Position numbers and translations under genes: made by a program. A DNA stretch of 64,000 nucleotides from Chitinophaga pinensis (GTDB taxonomy: Bacteria; Bacteroidota; Bacteroidia; NS11-12g; UBA9320). The stretch lies in the NCBI GenBank assembly GCA_945907065.1, contig CAMDSC010000007.1, positions 1-64,000 on the forward strand, given 5' to 3'. The first letter of the stretch is position 1. The number at the start of each line of letters is the position of its first letter. Shown one piece after another: positions 2,909 to 9,506 of this stretch. A model generated the notes under the pieces. The model searched no databases. It had not been told where the DNA came from and saw only the letters and a list, made by a program, of their open reading frames with translations.

Positions 2909-3523
2909 ATGTGCTACACCACCAGTATTCAAAAAGAACAACAGGATATTCAAAAGCATTTTAACCGCCAATTTAAAGCCGGGTTGGAGTTTCATCCCAC
3001 AGCGGTTAACCTTGGTTTTAGTCATAATTTTACCCCTATTATTCCGGTGGACGACAGTAATTTTATAACCTTGGCGCAATGGGGCCTCATTCCGTTTTGG
3101 GCTAAGGATACCTCGTTTCAAAAAAATACCTTAAATGCCAAAATTGAAACCATTACCGAATTGCCGTCCTTTAAAAATTATGTAAAAAACCGTTGCCTTA
3201 TTATAGCCGACGGGTTCTATGAATGGAAATGGCTGGATGAAAAAGGCAAGCAAAAGGAAAAGTATTTTATCTCTCTGCCCAATCAGGAACTGTTTGCCTT
3301 TGCTGGGATTTACAGCGATTACACCAACAAACAAACCGGTGAAACTTACCGAACTTACAGCATTGTAACTACCGAGGCCAACCCTCTGATGGCCGAAATA
3401 CACAATACCAAAAAACGGATGCCGGTAATACTGCCGCCCGATTACGAAAGCCATTGGCTAAACCTGGGATCGGTGGAGGATTTTAAAGAGATACCAGTGG
3501 AGTTGGTGGCTGCCCTTCAATAG
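2909..3523 (+). CDS. SOS response-associated peptidase family protein (YedK/HMCES, SRAP)
   Basis: SRAP proteins bind abasic sites in single-stranded DNA and form a protective covalent link through Cys2. The 204-residue protein has all the expected residues: Met-Cys at 1-2, Asn76 in LNAKIET with Glu80, Glu105 in GFYEWKW, and His165 in EIHNTKKRMPVIL. The WGLIPFWAKD block before Asn76 is also typical. Length and start are normal, since Cys2 must directly follow the initiator Met. It lies next to an error-prone DnaE-like polymerase, DinB and a LexA-like repressor, so a role in damage tolerance is likely. No copy of the TGTTAT-N5-ATAACA operator seen at 8138-8177 is present in the upstream 125 bases, so direct control by that repressor is not supported. 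Confidence 0.93.
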   Translation: MCYTTSIQKEQQDIQKHFNRQFKAGLEFHPTAVNLGFSHNFTPIIPVDDSNFITLAQWGLIPFWAKDTSFQKNTLNAKIETITELPSFKNYVKNRCLIIADGFYEWKWLDEKGKQKEKYFISLPNQELFAFAGIYSDYTNKQTGETYRTYSIVTTEANPLMAEIHNTKKRMPVILPPDYESHWLNLGSVEDFKEIPVELVAALQ

Positions 3524-3608: not shown

Positions 3609-6608
3609 TTACACCACCCCCGCCTCTTTCTCTTCCTTATCCATCGTTTCCCTGTCCACCGTAGTTAGCCGTTTCATATACTCCACCTCTATACTTACAA
3701 AATCATATTCTTCCACCACTTTGCCTTTTAGCTCATAGCAGCCCGGCCCGGTAAAGGGGCAGGCTTTGGCACTTGGCGGAAAATGAACGGTATCAATCCA
3801 CCGGCCTTCGGTATCTATAAAGGTGCCAAAATACATGCGGCCGCCTTTGCTGGTTCGGGTGTATTTTACGGTAATCAAATAGCCCACTATCATTACTCTT
3901 TTATGCAAGTGCGTTTTTAAATCGGCAGCCGTAAGCAGGCAGGGCATTGTATCTTTTAATAATTCAAACGGCGAACACAGGGAAAATCCCAGCAATTCTA
4001 TTTCATCAAAGGCCTCATCCACCTTAGAGTCAATAAGCGTGGGGAGTTTCCAGGTTTTCACTTCCGTTTCAAACAGTTGTTTTGTGGGTCTTTGGGTTTT
4101 TACAGGTTGCAGCATGGCGTGTATTTCCCACAGCAGTTCCTTTTTATTGCGGCCGGTAAACTGAAATGCCTTGGCCCGTATAAGTAGCCGCATTTGCTCA
4201 ATGGATAGCGGCACCCGTTTGGCAAAATCATACATATCGCGAAACGGTCCGTTTTGCTGCCGTTCTTCCAATATTTGCACAATGTTTTGGTGTTGCAATT
4301 CGCCAATCATACACAACCCCAGATAAATGGTGTTGCCCTGTATGGTGCATAGTGCACTGCTATTGTTGAGGCAGGGTGCTACAATAGTGGCCCCGTGCAT
4401 ACGGGCTTCGTGGATGTAGAGTTCCTGCCGGTAAAAACCACCGCCATTATTAAGCGTGGCTACCAAATACTCCAGCGGATAGTAGGCTTTAAGAAACAAT
4501 GCCTGATAACTCTCCACCGCATAACTGGCCGAGTGGCCTTTGGAAAACGCAAAATTGGCAAAGGTTTCAATCTGTGTCCAAATGTCGGCCACCTGTTTCA
4601 TGTCGTAGCCTTTGGTGCGGCAGTTGTCAAAAAACTTCTCTTTTATTACCTTAAATTCTACACGGTCTTTAAATTTCCACGACATGCCCCGCCGCAATAT
4701 ATCGGCTTCGGCCAGCGTGAGGCCGGCAAAATAATGGGCTATTTTTAACACATCTTCCTGATACACCATTACGCCGTAAGTTTCTTTCAATAAATCATAC
4801 AAAGCAGGCATGGCTGCTCTGGCTTTTTCCCGAAGGGTCTCATCGCGGTAGCGTATAATGTACTCCCGCATCATACCGCTTTTGGCCACACCCGGCCGTA
4901 TAATAGAACTGGCTGCCACCAACCTTAGATAATCATCGGCCTGCAACTTGGCCAGCAACATGCGCATGGCGGGTGATTCCACATAAAAACACCCAATAGT
5001 ATTGCCCACCCGCAGTAGTTTTTTTACGGCGTCATCTTTTTTAAACGCAGCCACATTGTGGATGTCCAAATCAGCCCCTTTGTTTTCTTTAACGATGCTT
5101 ATGCAATCTTTAATTTTTCCCAAACCCCGCTGGCTAAGAATATCAAATTTATACAAGCCAACATCCTCAGCTTCCACCATACTAAACTGTGTGGTAGGGT
5201 GGCCTTTGGGCATCATACTGGTGGCGGTATAACAGGTAATGGGATTTTCGGAAATGATAATACCGCAGGAATGTACCGTTAAATGGCTGGGGAATCCTTT
5301 AATTAAATGACTGTACTGTATGACCAATTTTCCAATATCGTCCACTTTGGGGTTGGGGTATTTGGCGGCACTTTGCAACCGGTCAATTTCGCCGGGGGGC
5401 AAACCAAACACTTTTCCCAATTCCCTAATGACGGCATCATGCTGAAAGGTATTGTAAGCCCCCAATAAGGCCACGTTATTATTTCGGTTAAAGGTTTTAA
5501 AAATATAATTGGTAATGTCATCCCGGTCGGTCCACGAAAAATCCATGTCAAAATCAGGCGCATTTTGCCGGTAAATATTTATAAACCGTTCAAAATACAA
5601 ATCCAGTTCAATGGGGTCAACATCCGTAATCCTAAGCAAGTATGCTAAAATACTATTGGCTCCGCTTCCGCGGCCTACATAGTAATACCCCTGCCGTTGG
5701 GCATAGTTCACAATATCCCAGTTAATCAAAAAGTACGACGAAAAATTGAGTTGGGCAATAACATCCAGTTCTTTGTCTATGCGTTGCAAAATTTCGGGAG
5801 TAGGGTTGGGGTAGCGGTAATGTAACCCTTTTAAACACTCAGTTCGCAACAGTTCAACATCATCGGCTATACTGCCTGTGTAATGCTTTAAATTTTTATT
5901 GGCCAGTTTGCCGTATGTAAAATCAATGGAGCAATCGTTTATAAGCCTTTCGGTATTGGCTATGATAGTTGGGTAGCCGGCAAAAGCAGCATAGAGTTCC
6001 GCTTTAGGGAGCATTATTTCCATTCCTTTGGCTTGCTGCTCCAAGGGCAGTTTACTCAATAACGTATTGGTATCAATGGCCCGCAACAGGCGGTGGGCAT
6101 TAAAGCGGCTTTTTCCGGCAAAGATTACAGTTTGTAAAACCACCAACTTATTAGCCTGATGTTTTGCCGATAAAAAAGGTAATGTGGCTAAGTCAGCTAT
6201 CGAAACGCCGATAAATTCATTATCTCTTAGCTTCCAGTTTTTGTAAGCACTCAGCGGATAAATAATAAAGGCATTATTAAATTCGGGGGCAATAGCATCA
6301 AAATCAGTGGCACTATGTAAATGGACCGAGAGATGTTCATTTAGTTCCTGAAAACCTTCATTATTTCTGGCAATTCCGATATATTGCTGTTGGGCATTAT
6401 TTCTGAAATCTATACCAACAATGGGTTTTATTTTATCTTTATACTCATCTGTTTGCGATAAACGAATAGCATCCAAACAAGCCGACGTATTATTAATATC
6501 GGTTAGTACAAAGGCATCATACCCGTTTTTTTGTACCTCGAGTATCAGGCCTTCTATTGAAAAAGTACCATAGCAAAAGCTGTAATATGTGTGGCAGTTG
6601 AGGAGCAA
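3609..6608 (-). CDS. DnaE-type DNA polymerase III alpha subunit, short error-prone (DnaE2/ImuC-like) class
   Basis: A C-family DNA polymerase. At 999 residues it is clearly shorter than the replicative DnaE. Visible parts are an N-terminal PHP domain (NCHTYYSFCYGT; the usual HxH metal motif reads NCH, so PHP chemistry is probably lost), the polymerase catalytic pair in PDFDMDFSW (about 350-358), the third aspartate in KFDILSQRGLGKI (about 488), a helix-hairpin-helix region, and a C-terminal OB fold (VMIVGYLITVKYTRTSKGG onward). The start codon is TTG: an in-frame TAA lies 12 nt upstream, and the family N-terminus begins right at this codon. It sits downstream of dinB on the same strand, separated by a 290-bp gap that holds an inverted-repeat element. 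With DinB and the S24 repressor it resembles the SOS mutagenesis cassettes of other bacteria, but ImuA and ImuB are absent. The replicative dnaE should lie elsewhere. Confidence 0.9.
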   Translation of the reverse strand: MLLNCHTYYSFCYGTFSIEGLILEVQKNGYDAFVLTDINNTSACLDAIRLSQTDEYKDKIKPIVGIDFRNNAQQQYIGIARNNEGFQELNEHLSVHLHSATDFDAIAPEFNNAFIIYPLSAYKNWKLRDNEFIGVSIADLATLPFLSAKHQANKLVVLQTVIFAGKSRFNAHRLLRAIDTNTLLSKLPLEQQAKGMEIMLPKAELYAAFAGYPTIIANTERLINDCSIDFTYGKLANKNLKHYTGSIADDVELLRTECLKGLHYRYPNPTPEILQRIDKELDVIAQLNFSSYFLINWDIVNYAQRQGYYYVGRGSGANSILAYLLRITDVDPIELDLYFERFINIYRQNAPDFDMDFSWTDRDDITNYIFKTFNRNNNVALLGAYNTFQHDAVIRELGKVFGLPPGEIDRLQSAAKYPNPKVDDIGKLVIQYSHLIKGFPSHLTVHSCGIIISENPITCYTATSMMPKGHPTTQFSMVEAEDVGLYKFDILSQRGLGKIKDCISIVKENKGADLDIHNVAAFKKDDAVKKLLRVGNTIGCFYVESPAMRMLLAKLQADDYLRLVAASSIIRPGVAKSGMMREYIIRYRDETLREKARAAMPALYDLLKETYGVMVYQEDVLKIAHYFAGLTLAEADILRRGMSWKFKDRVEFKVIKEKFFDNCRTKGYDMKQVADIWTQIETFANFAFSKGHSASYAVESYQALFLKAYYPLEYLVATLNNGGGFYRQELYIHEARMHGATIVAPCLNNSSALCTIQGNTIYLGLCMIGELQHQNIVQILEERQQNGPFRDMYDFAKRVPLSIEQMRLLIRAKAFQFTGRNKKELLWEIHAMLQPVKTQRPTKQLFETEVKTWKLPTLIDSKVDEAFDEIELLGFSLCSPFELLKDTMPCLLTAADLKTHLHKRVMIVGYLITVKYTRTSKGGRMYFGTFIDTEGRWIDTVHFPPSAKACPFTGPGCYELKGKVVEEYDFVSIEVEYMKRLTTVDRETMDKEEKEAGVV

Positions 6609-6898: not shown

Positions 6899-8083
6899 TC
6901 ATTTCTTCCCCCCATTAAACGGATTAAAATCATGTGGCTCAAAATCCATCCCTGCTGCCCGGCTCACGGAGTTTTTGCCATAGCGTTTCCGTATTTTATC
7001 CATCGCCTGATACAAGTTTATTTGTTCTATGGTTTCTTCAAACAAACTGTATTGGTGGCCGCCCTGCACCAAATGGCTGAACCGGATTCCGATTAGGCGA
7101 ATCAGCATTCGTTTTTGGTAAAGTTTATCAAACAATGTGTTTACCTTTTCTATCAACACATGATCGAGGGCTGTATAGGCAATGCGGGCTTGCATGGTAT
7201 AGGTATTAAAATCGGAATAGCGAATTTTTACCGTTACACAAGCTGTTAATTTATCTTCGCTTCGCAATTGAAATGCCAGTTTCTCTGTCATCCCTATCAG
7301 CAAATTTTTTAAAGCTTTTACATCAATGGTATCTTTATCAAAGGTGCGTTCGGTACTAATGGACTTGCGTTCCGAGTAAGGCACCACCGGCGAATTATCA
7401 ATGCCATTGGCTTTGCGCCAAATCACCGTTCCGTTTTCGCCCAATACCTGTTGCATCAGTTCTATCGGCATTTCCTGTAAGGTATGTATCCAGGCTATTC
7501 CCATTCCTCGTAGTAGCTGATAGGTTTTATCTCCCACCATGGGTATTTTGCGAATGGACAAGGGCGCTAAAAATCCTTTTTCGGTGCCAAATGGAATTTC
7601 CTTTTGCCCGTTGGGTTTGGCTTCGCCGGTTCCTACTTTCGATACGGTTTTGTTGGTAGATAAGGCAAATGAAATAGGCAGATTGGTTTCTCGTGTTATT
7701 TTTTGCCGCAGTTCGGTGGCCAGTTTGTAGCACCCAAAAAACTTATCCATTCCGGTAAGGTCTATATAAAATTCATCAATGGAAGGTTTTTCATAAAGCG
7801 GCACATCCTCGCTTATTATTTCGGTAATGATATCGGAATACTTGCTGTATTCGCCATGGTCACCTCTCACAATAATGGCTTCGGGGCACAATTGCCTGGC
7901 CATTTTCATAGGCATGGCCGAGTGGATGCCAAACGTTCTGGCCTCATAACTGCACGAAGCCACCACGCCTCTATCGCTGGTGCCGCCAACCAATACAGGC
8001 TTGCCCACCAATGCAGGATTGGTTAATCTTTCTACGGATACGAAGAAAGAGTCGAGGTCGATATGGACGATATTGCGGTTCAT
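6899..8083 (-). CDS. dinB: DNA polymerase IV (Y-family translesion polymerase)
   Basis: DinB copies past damaged bases with low fidelity. The 394-residue protein has the standard Y-family order: first catalytic Asp in IVHIDLDSFF (Asp9), SYEARTFGIHSAMP, the catalytic pair Asp103-Glu104 in KPSIDEFYIDLTG, the palm/thumb signature NKTVSKVGTGEAKPNGQ, HhH thumb residues IPMVGDKTYQLLRGMGI, and a little-finger domain (about 235-345). The C-terminus lacks an obvious clamp-binding QLxLF, though YSLFEE near residue 350 could serve. It is transcribed divergently from the LexA-like repressor, with its ATG 103 bp from that of the repressor. The operators in that gap probably control both genes. A hairpin (8092-8115) lies nine bases before its ATG and would sit in the mRNA leader. 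Confidence 0.95.
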   Translation of the reverse strand: MNRNIVHIDLDSFFVSVERLTNPALVGKPVLVGGTSDRGVVASCSYEARTFGIHSAMPMKMARQLCPEAIIVRGDHGEYSKYSDIITEIISEDVPLYEKPSIDEFYIDLTGMDKFFGCYKLATELRQKITRETNLPISFALSTNKTVSKVGTGEAKPNGQKEIPFGTEKGFLAPLSIRKIPMVGDKTYQLLRGMGIAWIHTLQEMPIELMQQVLGENGTVIWRKANGIDNSPVVPYSERKSISTERTFDKDTIDVKALKNLLIGMTEKLAFQLRSEDKLTACVTVKIRYSDFNTYTMQARIAYTALDHVLIEKVNTLFDKLYQKRMLIRLIGIRFSHLVQGGHQYSLFEETIEQINLYQAMDKIRKRYGKNSVSRAAGMDFEPHDFNPFNGGKK

Positions 8084-8091
8084 TTTTTTAT

Positions 8092-8115
8092 AGCCTACGG
8101 TTTAAACCGTGGGCT
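8092..8115. repeat. Imperfect 24-bp palindrome in the dinB leader
   Basis: AGCCtACGGTTTAAACCGTgGGCT pairs end to end except at one position. It lies nine bases upstream of the dinB ATG. It belongs in style to the dispersed palindromes centred on TTTAAA or TTAA. It may affect dinB translation. Confidence 0.55.
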
Positions 8116-8130
8116 GTAGATAATATTTTT

Positions 8131-8162
8131 TTTGTTTTGTTATTTAAAATAACATAATTTTG
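8131..8162 (+). promoter_or_regulatory. Promoter of the LexA-like repressor gene
   Basis: The -33 element TTTG is at 8131-8134 and the -7 element TAATTTTG (exact TAnnTTTG) at 8155-8162, 20 bp apart, close to the usual 19. Transcription should start near 8169, about 18 nt before the ATG at 8187. Operator 1 fills the spacer and operator 2 starts on the last two bases of the -7 element. Confidence 0.65.
8138..8154. promoter_or_regulatory. Operator 1 (17-bp palindrome)
   Basis: TGTTATTT-A-AAATAACA is a perfect palindrome with a one-base centre. It lies between the -33 and -7 elements of the repressor gene. Operator 2 has the same outer TGTTAT and ATAACA half-sites exactly 23 bp further on. These are probably binding sites of the neighbouring S24 repressor, allowing autorepression and control of dinB. 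Confidence 0.65.
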
Positions 8163-8177
8163 TTATCAATTATAACA
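8161..8177. promoter_or_regulatory. Operator 2 (17-bp near-palindrome)
   Basis: TGTTATCA-A-TTATAACA has one mismatched pair. The shared consensus with operator 1 is TGTTAT-N5-ATAACA. It covers the likely transcription start of the repressor gene, so a bound repressor would block initiation. Confidence 0.62.
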
Positions 8178-8186
8178 ATAAAATAA

Positions 8187-8984
8187 ATGGCAAACCAGTT
8201 TTTTTTTAACAATAATTTAAAGTTCCTGAGAACCAGACTGAAACAAAGTCAACAACAATTGGCCGAAAATTTGGGAATAAAACGAACCCAACTGGCCAGT
8301 TACGAACTGGGCAATACCACACCGCCCATAGAACCGCTGATGCGGATGGCTGATTTTTTTAAATTTACAGTGGACACCTTGCTCACGGTTGATTTAGCAA
8401 AGTTGGGGGAACTACACCTGCGGCAGCTGGAGGCCGGTGAGGATGTCTATATATCAGGCGGCAGGCTACGGGTGCTGGCCACTACGGTAAACAGTGATAA
8501 TAAAGAAAATATTGAATTGGTTCCCATTAAAGCGCGGGCTGGATACACGGCAGGTTATAATGACCCGCAGTATATCCAAAAACTCCCTGTTTTTCAGTTG
8601 CCGTTTTTATCCGATGACCGCAAGTACAGGGCTTTTCAAATAGAGGGAGATTCCATGCTGCCCATCAAATCGGGTTCGTATGTCATTGGCGAATTTGTAC
8701 AAGATTGGGACGGGATAAAGGATGGCGATGCTTGTATTATACTTACCGAAAACGACGGAGCTGTATTTAAAATTATTTATAACCAGATACGCAAAAAACA
8801 AAACCTGCTTTTGAAATCGCTCAATCCTTTGTTTGCCCCCTATGAAGTAAAAATTGGGGAGGTAAAAGAAATCTGGAAATTCAAATATTATTTTACCAAT
8901 GAAATGCCCGATGAGTTAAGTACCAATGAACTGGTGCTGTATAAGCTTACCGGCATTGATGAAAAATTGGAGAGGATGAAATAG
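8187..8984 (+). CDS. LexA-like transcriptional repressor: XRE helix-turn-helix plus S24 autoprotease
   Basis: A self-cleaving repressor, the likely damage sensor of this island. The 265 residues hold an N-terminal XRE-type HTH (about 10-66: LKFLRTRLKQSQQQLAENLG, then KRTQLASYELG) and a C-terminal S24 peptidase (about 115-235). The nucleophile is Ser156 in IEGDSMLPI and the general base Lys195 in GAVFKIIYN. Two Ala-Gly pairs, at 118-119 and 122-123 (KARAGYTAGY), lie just before the domain where LexA/UmuD-type proteins self-cleave. It differs from classical LexA, which has a winged-helix DNA-binding domain, and resembles phage CI-like or Bacteroidota SOS regulators. It is divergent from dinB, and its promoter contains two palindromic operators. 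Whether RecA triggers cleavage is inference from the family. Confidence 0.88.
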   Translation: MANQFFFNNNLKFLRTRLKQSQQQLAENLGIKRTQLASYELGNTTPPIEPLMRMADFFKFTVDTLLTVDLAKLGELHLRQLEAGEDVYISGGRLRVLATTVNSDNKENIELVPIKARAGYTAGYNDPQYIQKLPVFQLPFLSDDRKYRAFQIEGDSMLPIKSGSYVIGEFVQDWDGIKDGDACIILTENDGAVFKIIYNQIRKKQNLLLKSLNPLFAPYEVKIGEVKEIWKFKYYFTNEMPDELSTNELVLYKLTGIDEKLERMK

Positions 8985-9032: not shown

Positions 9033-9506
9033 ATGGAATCGGTTGCACTAAATACCATAAAAAAAGAATTAAATTTTTTACCGCCTGAGCAATTGGCCGA
9101 ATTATGTTTGCGGCTATCGCGCTACAAACGGGAAAATAAAGAATTGTTGAGTTACCTTCTTTTTGAAGCCCATGATGAAGCTGCTTTTATAGAAAAAGTG
9201 AAGGCAGATGTGGATGAACAATTTGAAACAATGCCCAAAGGTAATCTGTATATCGTTAAAAAATCGTTGCGCAAAATTTTAAAATCCATCAACAAATTCA
9301 TAAAATTTTCAGGAATAAAACAAACTGAAGTGGAACTGTTAATTTACTTTAGCCTAAAAATGAAAGCCGCCGGATATACCAATACCAGCAATACCTTGCT
9401 TACTAATTTGTATGACCAACAGCTTATAAAAATTAATAAAGCTATTGAAAAACTACACGAAGATTTGCAGTTTGATTATCAGAAGGAATTGGAGAGGTTG
9501 GCTTAA
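9033..9506 (+). CDS. Conserved-looking helical protein of unknown function
   Basis: I do not recognise this 157-residue protein. It appears entirely alpha-helical and highly charged, with no signal peptide or membrane segment, so it is probably cytoplasmic. The N-terminal motif LPPEQLAELCLRLSRYKRENKELL is followed by LLFEAHDEAAFIEKVK, a Lys-rich middle (KKSLRKILKSINKFIKFSG) and a C-terminal helix ending QKELERLA. The pattern is one of paired helices, as in HEAT-like or TPR-like folds, but no repeat is clear. It has its own -7 element and a short leader, and its end overlaps the end of the convergent DUF1569 gene by four bases. It lies next to the LexA-like repressor, but no operator precedes it. 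Confidence 0.75.
   Translation: MESVALNTIKKELNFLPPEQLAELCLRLSRYKRENKELLSYLLFEAHDEAAFIEKVKADVDEQFETMPKGNLYIVKKSLRKILKSINKFIKFSGIKQTEVELLIYFSLKMKAAGYTNTSNTLLTNLYDQQLIKINKAIEKLHEDLQFDYQKELERLA

What the first reader, a model, noticed from the sequence alone, without database searches (positions are those of the whole stretch)
8131..8177. Two 17-bp operators embedded in the LexA-like repressor promoter
Two copies of TGTTAT-N5-ATAACA lie at 8138-8154 (perfect) and 8161-8177 (one mismatch), 23 bp apart. They straddle a -7 element TAATTTTG and lie downstream of a TTTG -33. This is the arrangement expected for an autorepressor that also controls the divergent dinB. The operator half-site differs from the known LexA boxes I can recall, so it may define a regulon specific to this lineage.
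Basis: partly seen in the sequence, partly recalled or inferred. Interest (0 to 1): 0.6.

Follow-up and report, generated by a model that had tools for sequence, protein, structure and literature searches.

The report
Twin operators of a Bacteroidota SOS repressor
Two identical binding sites sit on the promoter of a DNA-damage repressor gene next to an error-prone DNA polymerase; they belong to a known Bacteroidota repressor family and use a lineage-specific target sequence that seems to control only this one spot in the genome.

Summary
They lie on a consensus Bacteroidota promoter (TTTG 8131-8134, N20, TAATTTTG 8155-8162). The pair occurs in 5 of 108 genomes of the order (4 exact, 1 with 2 mismatches), each time upstream of this repressor, and in none with the reversed control pattern. 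The flanking DNA has diverged.

The repressor (CI-type HTH plus S24 domain, Ala-Gly, Ser and Lys) belongs with the 'non-canonical LexA' SOS repressors of Bacteroidetes (PMC8565304). Best explanation: autorepression by promoter occlusion, probably with the divergent dinB-dnaE as target.

A related repressor clade has the same 6-N5-6 dyads at the same 23-bp spacing with half-site TGATTA (46 of 58 upstream regions). So geometry is kept while sequence drifts with the repressor. The nearest published operator, TTAC-AAATT-GTAA (Elizabethkingia), differs by one base per half-site.

'Regulon' is not supported: no other repair promoter in the genome has a site; recA has none. No clear dinB promoter was found, so control of dinB is inferred. 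New variant of a known kind; modest interest.

The parts
8138..8154 (.). Operator 1, TGTTAT-TTAAA-ATAACA, in the spacer between the -33 and -7 elements (about -29 to -13)
   Evidence: exact match; conserved in G003, G004, G006 exactly and in G050 with one mismatch
8161..8177 (.). Operator 2, TGTTAT-CAATT-ATAACA, overlapping the last two bases of the -7 box and the predicted start (about -6 to +11)
   Evidence: exact match; half-sites conserved in G003, G004, G006, one mismatch in G050
8131..8134 (+). -33 element TTTG of the repressor promoter
   Evidence: TTTG-N20-TAATTTTG, 10 of 10 consensus positions; consensus from passages of PMC7366714 and PMC6847099
8155..8162 (+). -7 element TAATTTTG; predicted transcription start near 8167 (G of the box at -5)
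   Evidence: numbering from a passage of PMC6847099
8187..8984 (+). SOS-type repressor, 265 aa: XRE/CI-type HTH plus S24 peptidase domain, Ala118-Gly119, Ser156, Lys195, C-terminal helix 248-264
   Evidence: Pfam HTH_19, HTH_3 and Peptidase_S24 above cut-off; phrog_4 transcriptional repressor; invariant A118, G119, S156, K195 in 30 sequences; model
6899..8083 (-). dinB-type Y-family polymerase, divergent; 54 bp lie between its start codon and operator 1
   Evidence: Pfam IMS and IMS_C
3609..6608 (-). dnaE-type DNA polymerase III alpha subunit downstream of dinB, same strand
   Evidence: Pfam DNA_pol3_alpha, finger, HHH_6, PHP
8149..8179 (-). Only weak candidate for a dinB-strand promoter, ATTG-N19-TATGTTAT, inside the operator pair (7 of 10 positions, not above chance)
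2909..3523 (+). SOS-response-associated peptidase (SRAP) neighbour, convergent with dnaE; no dyad with up to 2 mismatches upstream
   Evidence: Pfam PF02586, E 1e-47

Best explanation
The two dyads are the autoregulatory operators of a Bacteroidota 'non-canonical LexA' repressor. Repressor dimers bind both dyads: operator 2 covers the end of the -7 box and the start point, operator 1 fills the -33/-7 spacer, so RNA polymerase is excluded. The fixed 23-bp spacing (17-bp sites, 6-bp gap, about 2.2 turns) would let two dimers touch and bind cooperatively. DNA damage activates RecA, the repressor cuts itself at Ala118-Gly119 with Ser156/Lys195, and the repressor gene and probably the divergent dinB-dnaE are switched on. 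Shown here: sites, promoter match, conservation, domain and catalytic residues, clade-wide geometry, lack of other genomic targets. Inferred: binding, cooperativity, RecA-driven cleavage, control of dinB.
For: Pair in 5 of 108 genomes of the order, all five upstream of this repressor; 0 of 108 with the reversed pattern. Operators kept while DNA upstream differs in G003, G004, G006. Repressors with the TGTTAT-type pair form one clade although their genomes belong to two families (support 0.91, nine rows; L118 has one degraded dyad; families). A related clade has TGATTA-N5-TAATCA upstream of the orthologous repressor in 46 of 58 regions (shuffle maximum 2); in 38 of those 46 the dyad's TG is the end of the -7 box, and in 36 of the 38 a second dyad follows at 23 bp. 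23 bp is the commonest dyad-dyad distance over 196 homologue loci (25 pairs; next 9). In G050 dinB lies elsewhere and has its own TGTTAA-N5-TTAACA dyad ending one base before the start codon, one of 7 such sites in 2.5 Mb. Published: same-family repressors bind N5-spaced dyads in their own promoters; in E. anophelis the regulator and its opposite error-prone polymerase gene are induced by mitomycin C (PMC8565304).
Against: No binding or expression data. No dinB-strand promoter above shuffled background. In G004 and G006 the repressor-dinB gap is 316 and 444 bp, filled with unrelated DNA, which makes shared control from these operators less obvious. In the two relatives nearest to G050 (G505, G506) none of the TGTTAW dyads fetched as loci (10 of 12) lies at a dinB gene. 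The structure model is weak (mean pLDDT 66, pTM 0.43), so cooperative contacts cannot be modelled.
Confidence: 0.85

Rival explanations
1. The operators autoregulate the repressor only; dinB-dnaE is transcribed from its own unregulated or differently regulated promoter.
For: No dinB-strand consensus promoter at the operators; the repressor-dinB gap varies from 103 to 444 bp in the genus and from 86 to 830 bp in the related clade, with dyads near the repressor start.
Against: Persistent divergent pairing of repressor with dinB: 52 of 59 related-clade loci have dinB in the held DNA; G050 dinB carries its own dyad; published co-induction in E. anophelis.
Confidence: 0.25
2. The palindromes are RNA hairpins or an attenuator in a leader, not DNA operators.
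For: The 56-nt stretch folds at -8.9 kcal/mol, z -2.2.
Against: Operator 1 lies upstream of the predicted start, so it would not be in the transcript; the stretch 8163-8186 alone, which holds the predicted leader, is unfolded (0 kcal/mol); geometry relative to the -7 box is conserved in another clade with a different half-site.
Confidence: 0.04
3. The sites belong to some other regulator that happens to control this promoter.
For: Binding has not been tested; AT-rich dyads are common among XRE regulators (recalled).
Against: The genome holds no other repair or repressor promoter with the sites, and the dyad sequence changes together with the repressor clade, not with the host taxon.
Confidence: 0.06
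4. Chance pair in AT-rich DNA.
For: Single sites with one mismatch are at background in the genome.
Against: 31 of 20000 shuffles; 5 of 108 genomes against 0 of 108 for the reversed pattern.
Confidence: 0.01

Closest known systems
Non-canonical LexA of Bacteroidetes (Sanchez-Osuna et al. 2021, PMC8565304), CTAA-N5-TTAG and GGA-N5-TCC groups
   Same: CI-type HTH plus S24 domain with Ala-Gly and Ser-Lys, N5-spaced palindromic operators in its own promoter, association with dinB and dnaE, extra C-terminal helix, Bacteroidota
   Different: Half-site TGTTAT; twin operators at exactly 23 bp; only one promoter targeted here, where the published groups can control about nine operons; recA not targeted
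Elizabethkingia anophelis regulator and site TTAC-AAATT-GTAA (same paper, text on Fig. 8)
   Same: Diverged N5 dyad in a repressor promoter, divergent error-prone polymerase gene, mitomycin C induction published
   Different: One base per half-site (TTAC against TTAT); here two dyads in tandem instead of the single published site
Phage lambda OR operator array with CI
   Same: 17-bp operators a few bases apart on a promoter, CI-type HTH, S24 repressor; cooperative binding to OR1 and OR2 in lambdoid phages (PMC3317979 passages); 17-bp length (PMC10742460 passages)
   Different: Chromosomal locus next to DNA polymerases, Bacteroidota promoter, two identical sites and not three graded ones; cooperativity untested
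TGATTA-N5-TAATCA clade found here in loci L106-L178 (mostly records titled Bacteroidales)
   Same: Same gene pair dinB-repressor, same 23-bp dyad pair, -7 box fused to a dyad
   Different: Half-site TGATTA; the promoter's -7 box is fused to the upstream dyad of the pair, here to the downstream one

Membership tests
Non-canonical LexA (Bacteroidetes SOS repressors) | N-terminal CI-type (PF01381) HTH | tested here: met
   HTH_3 35.1 bits, cut-off 23; five N-terminal helices, blocks at pLDDT 66-92
Non-canonical LexA (Bacteroidetes SOS repressors) | S24 domain with Ala-Gly bond and Ser-Lys dyad | tested here: met
   Peptidase_S24 32 bits, cut-off 23.3; A118 G119 S156 K195 invariant in 30 sequences. 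Which residues are catalytic is assigned from the motif, not tested
Non-canonical LexA (Bacteroidetes SOS repressors) | Extra C-terminal alpha-helix | tested here: met
   helix 248-264, pLDDT about 61; weak confidence
Non-canonical LexA (Bacteroidetes SOS repressors) | Homologous to repressors whose promoters carry the published CTAA-N5-TTAG motif | tested here: met
   same alignment and tree; loci with CTAA-N5-TTAG upstream (26) are about 32-45% identical. The paper's own reference proteins were not available here
Non-canonical LexA (Bacteroidetes SOS repressors) | Own promoter carries an N5-spaced palindrome | tested here: met
Non-canonical LexA (Bacteroidetes SOS repressors) | Operator sequence is CTAA-N5-TTAG or GGA-N5-TCC | tested here: not met
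   TGTTAT-N5-ATAACA instead; the paper itself includes diverged palindromes such as TTAC-N5-GTAA, so this lowers assignment to the two main groups, not to the family
Non-canonical LexA (Bacteroidetes SOS repressors) | Controls several SOS operons | tested here: not met
   only this intergenic region; the paper reports small regulons in some lineages
Non-canonical LexA (Bacteroidetes SOS repressors) | Binds the site; DNA-damage inducible | not testable with these tools
   needs EMSA and RT-qPCR
Canonical LexA | Winged-helix LexA DNA-binding domain | tested here: not met
   no LexA DNA-binding family hit; HTH_19/HTH_3 instead
Lambda-type cooperative operator array | Cooperative binding of dimers to adjacent 17-bp sites | not testable with these tools
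   fixed 23-bp spacing fits but binding is untested

The most novel reading that the evidence does not exclude
This is a one-promoter SOS switch that keeps a phage-style operator array: paired 17-bp sites on a fixed 23-bp lattice, bound cooperatively, with one dyad fused to the -7 box. The lattice is conserved across at least two repressor clades while the half-site is rewritten with the recognition helix (TGTTAT, TGATTA) and the promoter has moved by one 23-bp step relative to the pair.
Probability: 0.45. Interest if true: 0.55.

Novelty: new variant of a known kind. Interest (0 to 1): 0.4.

Why it matters
It adds a lineage-specific operator to a family in which binding-motif drift is the open theme, and it separates what is conserved (N5 dyads, 23-bp pairing, overlap with the -7 box) from what drifts (half-site bases). 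It also points to a large related clade, mostly in records titled Bacteroidales, an order for which the 2021 paper reported no such repressors. Minimal single-locus versions give simple systems for testing how a repressor and its operator co-evolve.

Tried and rejected
Rejected: a genome-wide regulon. Of 23 sites with at most one mismatch (reversed control 22), 2 are here; of the other 21, 18 lie inside ORFs, 2 between convergent gene ends and 1 lies 129 bp upstream of a flavin-reductase-like gene. The looser TGTTA-N7-TAACA gives 5 sites (control 6), none at another repair promoter.

Rejected: hairpin or attenuator; chance.

Led nowhere: dinB-strand promoter search, no better than shuffles over 42 loci with gaps up to 330 bp. 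A literature search for the two half-site strings with 'repressor' gave 277 papers, 20 listed, none judged relevant from the listing. A search for six motif strings found only PMC8565304, for CTAA-N5-TTAG. A lambda spacing search returned nothing, so lambda gap sizes are recalled. The structure model is too weak for interface work; the PDB fold search matched LexA and lambda-type repressors with low TM-scores normalised by the query.

Not seen: supplementary Table S10 and the image of Figure 8A of PMC8565304, which may already list a TTAT-N5-ATAA palindrome in Weeksellaceae paralogues. Two loci outside the order (L217, L232) carry TGTTAT-AAATT-ATAACA as a single dyad, so the exact half-site is not unique to this lineage.

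One search drew 392 genomes (87 with a match); I read the 30 loci it gave plus 60 further matches, not all listed. Nine of 196 homologues of 180 residues or fewer were dropped from the tree; L100-L102 were left out as duplicates of L017-L019; L020 and L130 are the same locus counted twice in the tree.

Full report
What is there. They lie 23 bp apart, start to start. The gene to the right (8187-8984, +) encodes a 265-residue protein with a CI-type HTH and an S24 peptidase domain. The gene to the left (6899-8083, -) is a dinB-type polymerase, followed on the same strand by a dnaE-type alpha subunit (3609-6608). An SRAP gene (2909-3523, +) follows convergently.

Promoter. TTTG at 8131-8134, 20 bp, TAATTTTG at 8155-8162 fits the Bacteroidota -33/-7 consensus at 10 of 10 positions (consensus from passages of PMC7366714 and PMC6847099). 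With the numbering of PMC6847099 (G of the box at -5) the start falls near 8167. Operator 1 then fills the spacer (-29 to -13) and operator 2 covers -6 to +11. Its first TG is the last TG of the -7 box.

More than chance. Of 38 exact 6-N5-6 palindromes of any sequence in the window, this is the only pair with equal half-sites within 100 bp, apart from an overlapping poly-T run; 31 of 20000 dinucleotide shuffles of the intergenic stretch gave such a pair. Searching the pair with up to three mismatches in 108 genomes of the order found it in 5 (four exact, G050 with two mismatches), each time in front of this repressor; the reversed pattern was found in none. G003, G004 and G006 keep the operator block while the DNA between it and dinB is unrelated and of different length (gaps of 147, 316 and 444 bp). 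Two other genomes of the genus, G001 and G002, lack the repressor and carry umuDC-like genes. G005 is incomplete (77%) and has no repressor match.

Family. The protein fits the 'non-canonical LexA' repressors described by Sanchez-Osuna et al. 2021 (PMC8565304). I read text parts 3 to 6 of 9, one section, the outline and found passages; I did not read the supplements. Features shared: CI-type HTH, S24 domain, Ala-Gly, Ser and Lys invariant in 30 aligned sequences, a C-terminal helix in a weak model, N5 dyads in its own promoter, and dinB-dnaE linkage. That paper tested GGA-N5-TCC, CTAA-N5-TTAG and, in E. anophelis, TTAC-AAATT-GTAA. In E. anophelis the regulator and its opposite error-prone polymerase gene were induced by mitomycin C.

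Wider comparison. Repressors with the TGTTAT-type pair form one clade (support 0.91, nine rows including one locus held twice and L118 with one degraded dyad). A related clade with recognition helix KRSTLSGYE or KRPTLSGYE carries TGATTA-N5-TAATCA in 46 of 58 upstream regions (shuffle maximum 2); 51 of 59 have a site with at least 11 of 12 matches, and 52 of 59 have dinB in the held DNA. Support for this group as a clade is lower (0.66). In 38 of 46 loci with an exact dyad the -7 box ends in the dyad's TG; of these 38, 36 have a second dyad 23 bp downstream and none has one 23 bp upstream. In the window genus the second dyad is upstream (4 of 4). Measured from the start codon the pairs often sit at the same place in both clades (about -49 and -26), so relative to the pair the promoter differs by one 23-bp step. 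Some loci with the published CTAA-N5-TTAG motif also show pairs 22 or 23 bp apart (5 of 25 printed of 26). The main text of PMC8565304 has no word beginning 'cooperativ'.

Targets. In the whole genome 23 sites match with at most one mismatch, 22 for the reversed pattern. Besides the two here, 18 of 21 are inside ORFs, 2 between convergent gene ends and 1 upstream of a flavin-reductase-like gene. The recA upstream region shows no such dyad. In six related-clade genomes the exact TGATTA dyad occurs at exactly two places each; in 4 of 6 both are the operator pair, while in the other two one site is at the repressor and one elsewhere. Both clades thus look like single-locus switches.

dinB. Control of dinB is inferred. 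No dinB-strand promoter scored above shuffled DNA. In G050, where dinB is elsewhere in the genome, a TGTTAA-N5-TTAACA dyad ends one base before the dinB start codon and overlaps a -7-like TAAAATTG (5 of 6 positions, read); it is one of 7 TGTTAW dyads in 2.5 Mb (8 for the reversed pattern). In the two nearest relatives, G505 and G506, no dyad fetched as a locus was at a dinB gene (10 of their 12 sites were fetched).

Verdict. The finding is genuine and conserved, and its mechanism is most likely autorepression by promoter occlusion in a known repressor family. What is new is the half-site in this lineage (one base per half-site from a published operator, and also present as single dyads in L217 and L232), the fixed 23-bp pairing and its conservation in a related clade with another half-site. 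That the pairing is not described in print rests on the parts of PMC8565304 that I read and on the searches. Cooperativity in the manner of lambda CI is a plausible inference; lambda gap sizes are recalled, the 17-bp length and OR1-OR2 cooperativity come from passages of PMC10742460 and PMC3317979.

Noticed in passing
L106-L178 (loci): A large related group of repressors, mostly in records titled Bacteroidales, with divergent dinB and TGATTA-N5-TAATCA pairs; PMC8565304 says both its ortholog groups are absent from the Bacteroidales order.
   Followed up: partly
window 8093-8114; L054 8952-9395; L055 7029-7344; L056 649-795: The space between dinB and the operators is filled with different DNA in each genome, including inverted repeats, as if insertions were tolerated there.
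   Followed up: no
L217 and L232, last 40 bp before the repressor: Homologues outside the order carry TGTTAT-AAATT-ATAACA as a single dyad just after a TATATTTG box; possible convergence on the same half-site.
   Followed up: no
G001 (C34) and G002 (C9): Two genomes of the same genus lack the repressor-dinB pair and carry umuDC-like genes instead.
   Followed up: partly
L054 5890-6501 and L055 5476-6087: In G006 and G004 an AlkB-like 2OG-Fe(II) oxygenase gene lies near the repressor; no operator-like site besides the twin pair was found near it.
   Followed up: partly
window 9033-9506: 157-residue protein with no Pfam or NCBIfam match, also encoded near the repressor in G004 and G006.
   Followed up: no
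L100, L102, L127 record titles: MAGs titled Chitinophaga pinensis; the genomes concerned are 2.4-3.0 Mb, which looks small for that species (recalled), so the labels may be wrong.
   Followed up: no
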